Shown here piece by piece: positions 37,712-63,681 of a stretch of DNA of 64,000 nucleotides. The notes under the pieces were generated by a model. The model was not told the DNA's origin. It did no database searches and worked only from the letters and a program-made list of their open reading frames with translations. The first letter of the stretch is position 1. The number at the start of each line of letters is the position of its first letter. A program made the translations under genes and the position numbers. The stretch comes from Microbacterium sp. Marseille-Q6648 (GTDB taxonomy: Bacteria; Actinomycetota; Actinomycetes; Actinomycetales; Microbacteriaceae). The DNA is taken from assembly GCF_943181415.1 (NCBI RefSeq), contig NZ_CALPBZ010000003.1, positions 248,001 to 312,000 of the forward strand. Direction: 5' to 3'.

Positions 37712-37729
37712 TATCTCGACGTCAAGATA
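37712..37729. promoter_or_regulatory. 18-bp palindromic operator candidate upstream of icd
   Basis: TATCTCGACGTCAAGATA is an imperfect palindrome centred on GACGTC, 54 bp before the icd start. Its reverse complement differs at one base from the element at 63664-63681 upstream of sucC. In the icd reading direction it contains TTGACG, a possible -35 hexamer, so a bound regulator could block initiation. Confidence 0.65.
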
Positions 37730-37791
37730 AACCCGGTCGATGTGACGATGCGCGCGTGACCGGCACGGGTATTGCGGATACCCTGTGGTCC

Positions 37792-38244
37792 ATGGCTGAA
37801 CTGCGACTCGAGGAACTCTCCGCCGCAACCATCGTGGCGGTCAACAATCTGTCGCTCAAGCCCGGGCAGGAGCAGTTCCTCGCCCCGGTCAGCTACGGGA
37901 TCGCCGCGACCGTGATCAACCCGAAGACGTCGTGGCAGCGCGTCGTCCTGGACGGCGACGAGGTCGTCGGCTTCGTCAGCGCCAACTTCGACGACGAGGC
38001 TCCCGAGGAGCACTTCAAGTCCGTGCTCTGGCGCATCAACGTCGACGCGGACGATCAGGGACGCGGCGTGGGTCGATTCGCCGTCCAGAAGCTGATCGAC
38101 GAAGCCCGCGAGCGGGGCATGTCCCACGTCAACGTCATCTACGAGGCCGGCGAGGGCGGGCCCGAGGCGTTCTTCCGCCGGGTCGGGTTCACCCCCGTGG
38201 GAGAGACCGAGTACAGCGAGGTCATCGCCGAGATCCGGCTCTGA
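37792..38244 (+). CDS. GNAT family N-acetyltransferase
   Basis: This 150-residue protein has the GNAT acetyl-CoA binding loop in WRINVDADDQGRGVGRFAVQKLIDEA (about 79-104) and the later segments SHVNVIYEAGEGGPEAFFRRVGF. It resembles spermidine/amine acetyltransferase-like GNATs, but the acceptor is unknown. I chose ATG 37792 because the domain starts there; an upstream open frame lacks family features. An inverted repeat GGGTAT-N5-ATACCC (37767-37783) lies just before the start. Confidence 0.85.
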   Translation: MAELRLEELSAATIVAVNNLSLKPGQEQFLAPVSYGIAATVINPKTSWQRVVLDGDEVVGFVSANFDDEAPEEHFKSVLWRINVDADDQGRGVGRFAVQKLIDEARERGMSHVNVIYEAGEGGPEAFFRRVGFTPVGETEYSEVIAEIRL

Positions 38245-38380
38245 CCGCCTGAGCCGGCTCGCCCGGCATCCGCTCGCCGGTCACGCGAATCCGGAATCCG
38301 GACGTTCCGGCGCGACTCACGAGACCGGTCCGGCCCCGGCCGACCCGACGATCTGCGACGAGGATCGGCTGGCGGCATGG

Positions 38381-39202
38381 GTGCGCGACGCGGGAGGCAT
38401 CGCCCATCGCCTCGCCGTCGTCGAAGCGGGATTTCCGCTCCCAGCGCACCAGCGGGCTGTGAACGCGGGCGCCGTGAGCCGCATCCGACGCCATTGGCTG
38501 GCCACCTCCAACGCGCCCGAGGGACTGCGGACCGCGGCTGAGAACAGCGCGAGCCTGACGTGCGTGTCGGCCGCACGCCACCGCGGCTGGTGGATCCCCG
38601 AAGGCGTACCGGACGGAATCCACCTGCGCTTCGAGCCGCACGGAACCAAGCCGGCGTCCCAAAACCTCACCACCCACTGGACCCGGCGCATCGCACCGCC
38701 CCCGGGATACGGGCTGATCGAGTCGGTCGAAGACACGCTCGCGCATGTCGCGCTGTGCCTGCCTCCGGAGTCCGCGCAGGTGGTGTGGAACTCGGCCGCG
38801 GGGATCGAGGGCCTGTCGCCGCGGGCGCTGCAGCGTGTGAGATGGCGCACCGCTGCGGCCCGCCGGTGCGCCGGGCGGGTGTCGGCGCAGTCGGACTCGG
38901 GTCTGGAGACCATCGCCTTGGTGCGCCTCGCTCCCCTCGGCGTTCCCATCGCCCAGCAGGTCGTGCTGCTGGGCCGCCCCGTCGATCTGCTGGTCGGCGA
39001 ACGGCTCGTCGTGCAGATCGACGGCTTCGAGCACCACTCGTCGTCAGCGCAGCGCACGAAGGACGTGCGCTTCGACGCGGAACTGGTCCTGGCCGGCTTC
39101 ACCGTGCTGCGGTTCACCTATGCGCAGGTCGTACACGACTGGGACCACGTCGAGCGGACGGTCGCGCGGGCCATCGCCGCCGGGGCGCATCTGACACGTT
39201 GA
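38381..39202 (+). CDS. DUF559 endonuclease-fold protein with AbiEi-like N-terminus
   Basis: This protein of 273 residues has an N-terminal winged-helix-like region (AHQRAVNAGAVSRIRRHWLAT) and a C-terminal DUF559/Vsr-like nuclease fold (VDLLVGERLVVQIDGFEHHSSSAQRTKDVRFDAEL followed by VLRFTYAQVV). Such genes are abundant in Microbacteriaceae; the function is unproven. The first available start in frame is GTG 38381, but the helix EDRLAAWVRDAGG appears to begin about eight codons earlier and the frame is open back through the GNAT gene. The true start is therefore unclear, or the N-terminus is trimmed. Confidence 0.7.
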   Translation: MRDAGGIAHRLAVVEAGFPLPAHQRAVNAGAVSRIRRHWLATSNAPEGLRTAAENSASLTCVSAARHRGWWIPEGVPDGIHLRFEPHGTKPASQNLTTHWTRRIAPPPGYGLIESVEDTLAHVALCLPPESAQVVWNSAAGIEGLSPRALQRVRWRTAAARRCAGRVSAQSDSGLETIALVRLAPLGVPIAQQVVLLGRPVDLLVGERLVVQIDGFEHHSSSAQRTKDVRFDAELVLAGFTVLRFTYAQVVHDWDHVERTVARAIAAGAHLTR

Positions 39203-39232
39203 GACCCTGATCGCAAGCCGGGCGGCCCCGGG

Positions 39233-61518: not shown

Positions 61519-61524
61519 GGTGCG

Positions 61525-62427
61525 TTACAGCGACTCGATGATCTCGCGCATGAGCGTGGCGGTCTCGGACGGCGTCTTGCCGACCTTGACACCGGCGGCC
61601 TCGAGGGCCTCCTTCTTCGCCTGCGCGGTACCCGCCGAGCCCGAGACGATGGCGCCGGCGTGGCCCATGGTCTTGCCCTCGGGGGCGGTGAAGCCTGCCA
61701 CGTAGCCGACGACGGGCTTGGTGACGTTCGCCTTGATGAAGTCCGCCGCGCGCTCCTCGGCGTCGCCGCCGATCTCGCCGATCATGACGATCGCCTTGGT
61801 CTCGGGGTCGGCTTCGAAGGCGGCGAGCGCGTCGATGTGCGTCGTGCCGATGATCGGGTCGCCGCCGATGCCGATGGCGGTCGAGAAGCCCAGATCGCGC
61901 AGCTCGAACATCATCTGGTAGGTCAGGGTGCCCGACTTCGACACCAGGCCGATGGGGCCCTTGCCGGTGATGTTGGCGGGGGTGATGCCCACCAGCGACT
62001 CTCCGGGGGTGATGATGCCGGGGCAGTTCGGACCGATGATGCGGGTCGCGTTGCCCTTGGACTGCGCGTAGGCCCAGGCCTCGGCGCTGTCGCCGACCGG
62101 TACGCCTTCGGTGATGACGACGAGCAGCGGGATCTCGGCGTCGATGGCCTCGATCATCGCGGCCTTGGTGAAGGCTGCGGGCACGAACGCGATCGACACG
62201 TCCGCCCCCGTCTTCTCCATCGCCTCGGCGACCGAGCCGAAGACGGGGAGTTCGACGCTGGCGCCGTCCTTGTCCTTGTGCAGCACCGTGGTGCCGGCCT
62301 TGCGCGCGTTCACGCCGCCGACGACGTTGGTACCCGCCTTCAGCATGAGCGCGGTGTGCTTGGTGCCCTCGCCGCCGGTGATGCCCTGGACGATGACCTT
62401 GGAGTCCTTGTTGAGGAAGATCGACAT
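61525..62427 (-). CDS. sucD: Succinyl-CoA synthetase alpha subunit
   Basis: This 300-residue subunit binds CoA and carries the phosphohistidine His256 in [13 protein letters not shown]. The CoA-binding Rossmann motif [16 protein letters not shown] and the NCPGIITP segment are present. It lies 22 nt after sucC on the same strand and is closed by the hairpin at 61472-61518. Confidence 0.97.
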
Positions 62428-62449
62428 ATCTGGAAGTCCTTATCCGGGA

Positions 62450-63613
62450 TCAGGCGTTGGCGAGCTCGGCGGCCTTGTCGGCGCCTTCGTCCATGGTCGC
62501 AGCGAGGGTGACAAGCGGGTGGCCGGCGTCTTCGAGGATCTTGCGGCCCTCTTCGACGCGGTTGCCGTCCAGACGCACCACGAGGGGCTTGGATGCCGTC
62601 GAGCCGAGCTCGGCGAGCGCACCGACGATGCCCTTGGCGACGGCGTCGCACGCGGTGATGCCGCCGAAGACGTTGACGAACACCGACTTCACCTGCGGGT
62701 CGCCGAGGATGACGTCCAGGCCCGCGGCCATGACCTCGGCCGAGGCGCCGCCGCCGATGTCGAGGAAGTTGGCGGGCTTGACGCCGCCGTGGTTCTCGCC
62801 GGCGTAGGCGACCACGTCGAGGGTCGACATGACCAGGCCCGCGCCGTTGCCGATGATGCCGACCTGTCCGTCGAGCTTGACGTAGTTGAGGTCGTTCTCC
62901 TTGGCCTTGGCCTCGAGCGGGTCGGCCGCGTCCTTGTCCTCGAGCAGCGTGTGCGAGGCGTGACGGAACTCGGCGTTCTCGTCGAGCGAGACCTTGCCGT
63001 CGAGGGCGATGATGTCGCCGTCCTCGGTCCGGACGAGGGGGTTGACCTCGACCAGGGTGGCGTCCTCGCCCTTGTACACGGCGAAGAGCTTGACGAAGAC
63101 GTCGGCGACCTTGGGCACGAGCTCGTCGGGGAAGTTCGCGGCGCGGGCGATCTCGAGCGCCTTGGCCTGGTCGATGCCGGTCAGCGGGTCGACCTCGATC
63201 CTCGCGAGGGCCTCGGGCTTCTCGACCGCGAGCTGCTCGATCTCCATGCCGCCCTCGACCGAGCACAGGCTCAGGTAGGAGCGGTTGGCGCGGTCCAGCA
63301 GCACGGAGAAGTAGTACTCCTCGGCGATGCGGGCGCCTGCGGCGACCATGACGCGCTTGACGACGTGGCCCTTGATGTCGAGGCCGAGGATGGCCTTGGC
63401 CGCCTCGTATGCCTCGTCGGGGTTCTTGGCGACCTTGACGCCGCCGGCCTTTCCTCGTCCGCCGGTCTTGACCTGGGCCTTGACGACGACGACGCCGCCG
63501 AGCTTCTCAGCGGCCGCCTTCACTTCTTCTGGGGTGTCCGCGACGATGCCGGCGAGCACCGGCACCTCGTACTTCTCGAACAGATCGCGTGCCTGGTACT
63601 CGTAGAGATCCAC
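62450..63613 (-). CDS. sucC: Succinyl-CoA synthetase beta subunit
   Basis: This 387-residue subunit has an ATP-grasp domain and a C-terminal CoA-ligase domain. The opening [21 protein letters not shown], the segment [23 protein letters not shown] and the late [17 protein letters not shown] are diagnostic. GTG 63613 follows a GAAGGA site. An 18-bp palindrome shared with the icd promoter region is centred about 60 bp upstream of the start. With icd it indicates coordinate control of TCA enzymes. Confidence 0.97.
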
Positions 63614-63663
63614 GTGCAGTCCTTCGCTGTGGCGAATGGGCGGCGCCGACATCAGCGCCGGAT

Positions 63664-63681
63664 TGTCTTGACGTCGAGATA
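63664..63681. promoter_or_regulatory. 18-bp palindromic operator candidate upstream of sucC
   Basis: TGTCTTGACGTCGAGATA here matches the reverse complement of the icd element (37712-37729) at 17 of 18 positions. Both lie about 50 bp before the start codon. The core TCTTGACGTCGAGA is an imperfect inverted repeat around GACGTC. Confidence 0.65.

What the first reader, a model, noticed from the sequence alone, without database searches (positions are those of the whole stretch)
37712..63681. Near-identical 18-bp palindrome upstream of icd and sucC
The element at 37712-37729 and that at 63664-63681 match at 17 of 18 positions in opposite orientation, each about 50 bp before a TCA-cycle start codon and 26 kb apart. 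Chance recurrence is very unlikely. It suggests one dedicated TCA regulator whose identity is not in this window.
Basis: seen in the sequence. Interest (0 to 1): 0.78.

Follow-up and report, generated by a model that had tools for sequence, protein, structure and literature searches.

The report
TamR-type operators before TCA genes
An 18-base palindrome in front of four citric-acid-cycle operons of this actinomycete is very probably the operator of TamR, a MarR-family repressor known from Streptomyces, used here without the tam gene it is named after.

Summary
The palindrome TATCTYGAYRTCRAGATA occurs four times in the 3.49 Mb genome at 0-1 mismatch and never at exactly 2: before icd, sucCD, acnA and sdhC. 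In 29 of 29 genus genomes searched, 68 of 69 places lie before one of these genes (one cut by a contig end); a reversed control finds none. In Streptomyces and other Actinomycetes the palindrome lies between tam (trans-aconitate methyltransferase) and a divergent MarR gene, the TamR arrangement. This genome encodes one TamR ortholog outside the window, without a detected tam and without a site near its own gene. In 248 genomes of the order, all 142 with an exact site have a TamR-like match, and none of the 57 without one has a site. Most likely TamR represses these operons and citrate or trans-aconitate relieves it (known in S. coelicolor, inferred here). acnA and sdhC, whose enzymes hold iron-sulfur clusters, also carry an iron-box-like element after the site in 42 of 42 regions; icd and sucC in 0 of 23. 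No binding or expression was tested.

The parts
37712..37729 (.). TamR-type operator before icd (TATCTCGACGTCAAGATA on +), 53 nt before the icd start and 62 nt before the divergent GNAT gene
   Evidence: before icd in 19 of 29 genus genomes at <=1 mismatch
63664..63681 (.). TamR-type operator before sucCD (TGTCTTGACGTCGAGATA on +), 50 nt before the sucC start
   Evidence: before sucC in 4 of 28 genus genomes at <=1 mismatch, 26 of 28 at <=2, 27 of 28 at <=3; 560 shuffled regions never below 5
37690..37695 (-). putative icd -10 element TAGGCT, 16 nt downstream of the operator, so the operator covers the likely -35 region
   Evidence: a TAGGCT-like hexamer 14-19 nt after the site in 18 of 19 icd regions; no transcript data
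63697..63702 (-). putative sucC -10 element TAGGCT, 15 nt upstream of the operator, so the operator lies just past the likely transcription start
   Evidence: TAGGnT begins 20-21 nt before the site in 4 of 4 regions; similar hexamers can be read by eye in most rows; no transcript data
35439..37658 (-). icd, monomeric isocitrate dehydrogenase, GTG start
   Evidence: PF03971, 1217 bits
62450..63613 (-). sucC, succinyl-CoA ligase beta subunit, GTG start
61525..62427 (-). sucD, succinyl-CoA ligase alpha subunit, presumed same operon
   Evidence: translation; named by eye, no family search
37792..38244 (+). GNAT acetyltransferase gene divergent from icd; possibly also under the icd operator

Best explanation
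The palindrome is the operator of a TamR ortholog, a MarR-family protein encoded elsewhere in the genome (G000:C1, L191:6206-6730, 175 aa). Its dimer binds TATCTYGAYRTCRAGATA and blocks transcription of acnA, icd, sucCD and sdhCDAB. When citrate accumulates, or aconitate is released from damaged aconitase, the ligand loosens TamR from DNA and these enzymes of the stretch from citrate to fumarate rise together. SHOWN here: the sites, their gene specificity and conservation, the ortholog, the link of the same palindrome to tamR-tam in other Actinomycetes, the co-occurrence. KNOWN for S. coelicolor (review PMC5487221, passages): TamR represses citric-acid-cycle genes including aconitase and is released by citrate and trans-aconitate. 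INFERRED: binding, repression and ligand response in this organism.
For: Four sites at 0-1 mismatch in the genome, all before TCA operons. All 69 places in 29 genus genomes were read: acnA 28 plus one cut by a contig end, icd 19, sdhC 16, sucC 4, a glyoxalase-like gene 1. A site at <=3 mismatches in 42 of 49 Tam loci of the class; a MarR gene near tam in 10 of 12 loci looked at. In 80 named streptomycete loci the 200 bp before tamR hold a match at <=2 mismatches in 75 and at 3-4 in 5 (1600 shuffles: 3 at <=4), with Tam divergent in 78. The own ortholog's best hit is the tam-linked MarR in 10 of 10 genomes chosen because they have one; own genome best E 1e-56, next MarR 4e-8. Sites and TamR co-occur: 142 of 142 against 0 of 57, also inside two mixed families. 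The site lies upstream of the likely -10 in icd and downstream of it in sucC, which suits a repressor.
Against: No binding, expression or ligand data for this organism. The own tamR has no site within the 13 kb read at <=4 mismatches, so autoregulation is missing, and no Tam is found at E<=1e-40. 49 of 106 site-less genomes have a TamR-like match at E<=1e-12; an exact-match search can miss diverged sites. At most 14 candidates per genome were scored, and relatedness inflates the counts. Seven of 49 Tam loci have no site. No other regulator was put through the same test. In sdhC the likely -10 lies about 28-40 nt beyond the site, a less clearly blocking position.
Confidence: 0.87

Rival explanations
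1. Another MarR-family or unrelated regulator of this genus has taken over the palindrome, and the TamR ortholog binds elsewhere.
For: 40 MarR_2-like hits in the genome; the own tamR has neither tam nor a site beside it.
Against: Only one is a clear TamR ortholog; the stretch LV(S/T)SGTMT(N/A)R(I/V)D(R/K)L, taken to be the recognition helix, is nearly unchanged between it and six tam-linked TamRs; no genome of 248 has an exact site without a TamR-like match.
Confidence: 0.08
2. The same TamR acts as an activator of these operons.
For: In sdhC the site may lie some 50-70 bp upstream of the start, and the spacings of about 28-30 and 38-41 nt differ by about one helical turn.
Against: The position relative to the likely -10 differs among targets and is downstream of it in sucC; TamR of S. 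coelicolor is a repressor (PMC5487221, passages).
Confidence: 0.07
3. Chance recurrence, or a repeat without regulatory role.
For: Seven sites at exactly 3 mismatches, five of them inside long ORFs, look like background.
Against: No reversed-control match in 29 and in 248 genomes; gene-specific conservation in genus and order.
Confidence: 0.01

Closest known systems
TamR (SCO3133) of Streptomyces coelicolor, MarR family (Huang and Grove 2013 and 2015: not held; cited in PMC5487221, passages read; name and number in PMC9739823, one passage read)
   Same: Orthologous MarR protein; represses citric-acid-cycle genes including aconitase; same palindrome at <=2 mismatches before tamR in 75 of 80 streptomycete loci (S. 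coelicolor itself was not among the named records)
   Different: No tam found, no site beside its own gene; targets here are acnA, icd, sucCD, sdhCDAB. From recall of the 2015 abstract the S. coelicolor targets are tamR, tam, sacA, mdh, idh and aceB1, without sucCD or sdh
DtxR iron regulon of Corynebacterium glutamicum (PMC1382209, passages read)
   Same: sdhCD is among genes with a DtxR motif; DtxR consensus TTAGGTTAG(G/C)CTAACCTAA resembles the second element after the acnA and sdhC sites; heme oxygenase hmuO is a target
   Different: DtxR is another protein family; the palindrome of the finding is not its box; icd and sucC lack the second element
MarR proteins of solved structure 8ylf and 2fbk
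   Same: Nearest solved sequences to the TamR profile: 8ylf E 1.5e-44, 2fbk E 5e-20
   Different: Their ligands were not checked; that 2fbk is the urate regulator HucR is recalled

Membership tests
TamR (MarR family) | MarR winged-helix domain | tested here: met
   PF12802 E 1.6e-16, PF01047 E 2.2e-8
TamR (MarR family) | Orthology to the MarR protein next to tam | tested here: met
   55-64% identity to tam-linked TamRs; best hit is the tam-linked one in 10 of 10 chosen genomes
TamR (MarR family) | Gene next to tam with a shared operator | tested here: not met
   No Tam at E<=1e-40 in the own genome or the two other genus genomes of that set; no site within 13 kb of the own tamR. Met in relatives
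TamR (MarR family) | Operator before aconitase and other citric-acid-cycle genes | tested here: met
   acnA, icd, sucC, sdhC
TamR (MarR family) | Binds the operator; released by citrate and trans-aconitate | not testable with these tools
   needs purified protein
DtxR/IdeR box (second element) | TTAGGTTAG(G/C)CTAACCTAA-like palindrome before iron genes | tested here: inconclusive
   T(T/A)AGGnnnnCCT within 80 nt after the site in 27 of 27 acnA and 15 of 15 sdhC regions, 0 of 19 icd and 0 of 4 sucC; shuffles 5 of 3250. Exact TTAGGNNNNCCTAA twice in the own genome: after the sdhC site and before a heme oxygenase gene. Match to the 19-mer is only partial: mean 11.8 (acnA) and 11.2 (sdhC) of 19 against 9.4-9.5 in shuffles

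The most novel reading that the evidence does not exclude
In this genus TamR has been freed from tam and from autoregulation and has become the governor of the citrate-to-fumarate stretch. At the two iron-sulfur enzymes, aconitase and succinate dehydrogenase, it is joined by a DtxR-type iron box that follows the TamR operator (1-3 nt away in sdhC, 17-42 nt in acnA). Two signals, citrate/aconitate build-up and iron supply, would be read at the same promoters, while icd and sucCD see TamR alone. (Probability raised from 0.5 to 0.55 after the recount.)
Probability: 0.55. Interest if true: 0.62.

Novelty: new variant of a known kind. Interest (0 to 1): 0.48.

Why it matters
It names a testable TCA-cycle regulator for a large part of this order (exact site in 142 of 248 genomes), where control of the pathway is, to my knowledge, known mainly from Corynebacterium and Streptomyces. 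It shows a regulator that works without the gene it is named after, gives a short operator consensus for annotation, and predicts which metabolites, and perhaps iron, set central carbon flux.

Tried and rejected
Literature by sequence: six 14-mers of the palindrome gave no paper. Searches with TamR, with trans-aconitate, MarR and Streptomyces, with SCO3133 and TamR-regulon terms, and with TCA, Microbacterium and palindrome terms (open-licence papers only) showed one review on the system, PMC5487221 (passages read). Of three other papers that hold the terms, single passages were read: PMC12322963 only cites TamR, PMC9739823 names TamR/SCO3133 as induced by oxidative stress, PMC10771440 lists SCO3133 as a sigma-E target. 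I saw no report of TamR control of sucCD or sdh in these listings. The own genus was not named by any tool; Microbacterium is only my guess. RNA hairpin: not pursued, since the palindrome has no loop and in icd lies upstream of the likely start. No structure prediction was run, because it would not settle DNA or ligand binding.

Counts to read with care: one search did not list all its places; read 30 and 19 of them, and the 19 were picked by me. The tables were typed by hand into. The 49 Tam loci are 30 returned and 19 chosen; L182, fetched because it has a site, is left out. The 80 loci are the best 80 of 485 relatives and 79 are labelled Streptomyces, one Kitasatospora. Of the 12 loci, L148 showed no ORF over the display filter and L182 has a glycosyltransferase-like gene, not a MarR gene, beside tam. 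In one search my script looked at the wrong position of the cut locus L112; one search puts its site at 1280, before acnA.

Full report
Observation. The genes are a monomeric isocitrate dehydrogenase starting at 37658 and sucC starting at 63613, both on the minus strand, 53 and 50 nt from the elements. One pattern, TATCTYGAYRTCRAGATA, describes both (the second with one mismatch).

Genome-wide scan. In the 3.49 Mb genome the pattern occurs 3 times exactly, once with one mismatch, never with two and seven times with three; the reversed pattern occurs once at three or fewer. Base composition predicts 0.00001, 0.001, 0.03 and 0.63. The four close sites lie before icd, sucCD, acnA (L002) and sdhC (L004). 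Five of the seven 3-mismatch sites lie inside long ORFs, two do not; they were not followed further.

Footprint in the genus. All 29 genus genomes searched have 1-4 places at one mismatch or fewer, 69 in all, and the reversed pattern finds none. All 69 were read: 28 before acnA, one more cut by a contig end but with the gene that flanks acnA elsewhere (named by eye), 19 before icd, 16 before sdhC, 4 before sucC, and one before a glyoxalase-like gene. The sucC site is weaker but conserved: of 28 sucC upstream regions 4 have a site at one mismatch or fewer, 26 at two or fewer, 27 at three or fewer, and one has none better than five; 560 shuffled regions never gave fewer than five. One genome (G023) had no sucC match.

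Wider distribution. In the order, 142 of 248 genomes (50 of 85 genera) have an exact site, control 0 of 248. Of the 30 loci returned, 25 are before acnA (24, L112), two before a trans-aconitate methyltransferase gene (L117, L119), two before MmgE/PrpD genes (L128, L132) and one between a transporter-like and a nucleoside-hydrolase-like gene (L109, by eye). Of 19 further loci that I picked, 9 are before acnA, 8 before PrpD-type genes, one between tam and tamR, one before a glyoxalase-like gene. Apart from L109 and the glyoxalase-like genes, the targets handle tricarboxylates or close relatives of them (by their family names).

The regulator. The tam genes were the lead. Tam is found in 69 of 148 class genomes at E<=1e-40. 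Of 49 Tam loci read, 42 have the palindrome at three mismatches or fewer, seven do not. In 10 of 12 loci looked at closely a MarR gene lies divergent from or near tam. A scan of named genomes with the MarR protein returned 80 streptomycete loci; the 200 bp before the gene hold a match at two mismatches or fewer in 75 and at three or four in 5, against 3 of 1600 shuffled regions at four or fewer, and Tam is divergent in 78. One Tam of the class passes NCBIfam's equivalog cut-off for trans-aconitate 2-methyltransferase (379.5 of 320 bits); the L182 Tam falls below it (296). This is the arrangement of TamR as I recall it from the 2015 abstract. In S. coelicolor TamR represses citric-acid-cycle genes, including aconitase, and is released by citrate and trans-aconitate (PMC5487221, passages).

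The own ortholog. The window's genome encodes one such protein, at G000:C1 (L191:6206-6730, 175 aa), 64% identical over 159 residues to a streptomycete TamR, the next MarR protein being at 4e-8. In reverse, its best hit is the tam-linked MarR, within 1 kb of tam, in 10 of 10 genomes chosen because they have one. It lies between a glmU-like and an ABC-F-like gene (named by eye), has no site at four mismatches or fewer in the 13 kb read, and no Tam is found in the genome. In the order set all 142 genomes with a site have a TamR-like match (E<=1e-12), the 57 without one have no site, and 49 have the protein but no exact site. At most 14 candidates per genome were scored. Shared ancestry inflates such counts, but the link also holds inside two mixed families: with site and TamR 8, site only 0, TamR only 2, neither 8 (f10, p 0.001), and 6, 0, 4, 9 (f3, p 0.01).

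How it works. In icd the site ends 14-19 nt before a TAGGCT-like hexamer in 18 of 19 regions, so it covers the likely -35 region. In sucC the hexamer comes first and the site starts 14-15 nt after it in the 4 regions (and by eye in most), just past the likely start. Either position would block polymerase. I therefore read TamR as a repressor here, released by citrate or aconitate. Binding, repression and ligand are inferred from S. coelicolor.

A second element. T(T/A)AGGnnnnCCT follows the site within 80 nt in 27 of 27 acnA and 15 of 15 sdhC regions (17-42 and 1-3 nt away), and in 0 of 19 icd and 0 of 4 sucC regions; shuffles give 5 of 3250. Aconitase and succinate dehydrogenase contain iron-sulfur clusters, the other two enzymes do not (general knowledge). 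In the own genome the exact form TTAGGNNNNCCTAA occurs only twice: after the sdhC site and before a heme oxygenase gene, a DtxR target in C. glutamicum (PMC1382209, passages). Two DtxR-family proteins are present. The match to the full 19-base DtxR consensus is only partial. Joint control by iron is suggested, not proven.

Verdict. It is best named a tam-less variant of the TamR regulon.

Noticed in passing
L002 and L004 (own genome), after the acnA and sdhC sites; G000:C3:213517-213530 and G000:C2:590437-590450: A DtxR/IdeR-box-like element T(T/A)AGGnnnnCCT follows the TamR site at the two iron-sulfur enzymes in 42 of 42 genus regions and at icd and sucC in 0 of 23; the exact TTAGGNNNNCCTAA has one other copy in the own genome, before a heme oxygenase gene.
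   Followed up: partly
L069:3001-3018 and L195:1501-1518: The same palindrome stands directly before a glyoxalase-like (VOC) gene in two genera of different families; function unknown.
   Followed up: no
L128, L132, L197, L199, L200, L202, L204, L206, L207, L209: In two other families of the order (f7, and genus g26 of f14) the palindrome lies before MmgE/PrpD-type genes of two kinds about 29% identical to each other, hinting at use of the same operator for methylcitrate or related metabolism.
   Followed up: partly
window 37792-38244: A GNAT acetyltransferase gene divergent from icd shares the operator region in 14 of 19 icd loci of the genus and may be co-regulated.
   Followed up: no
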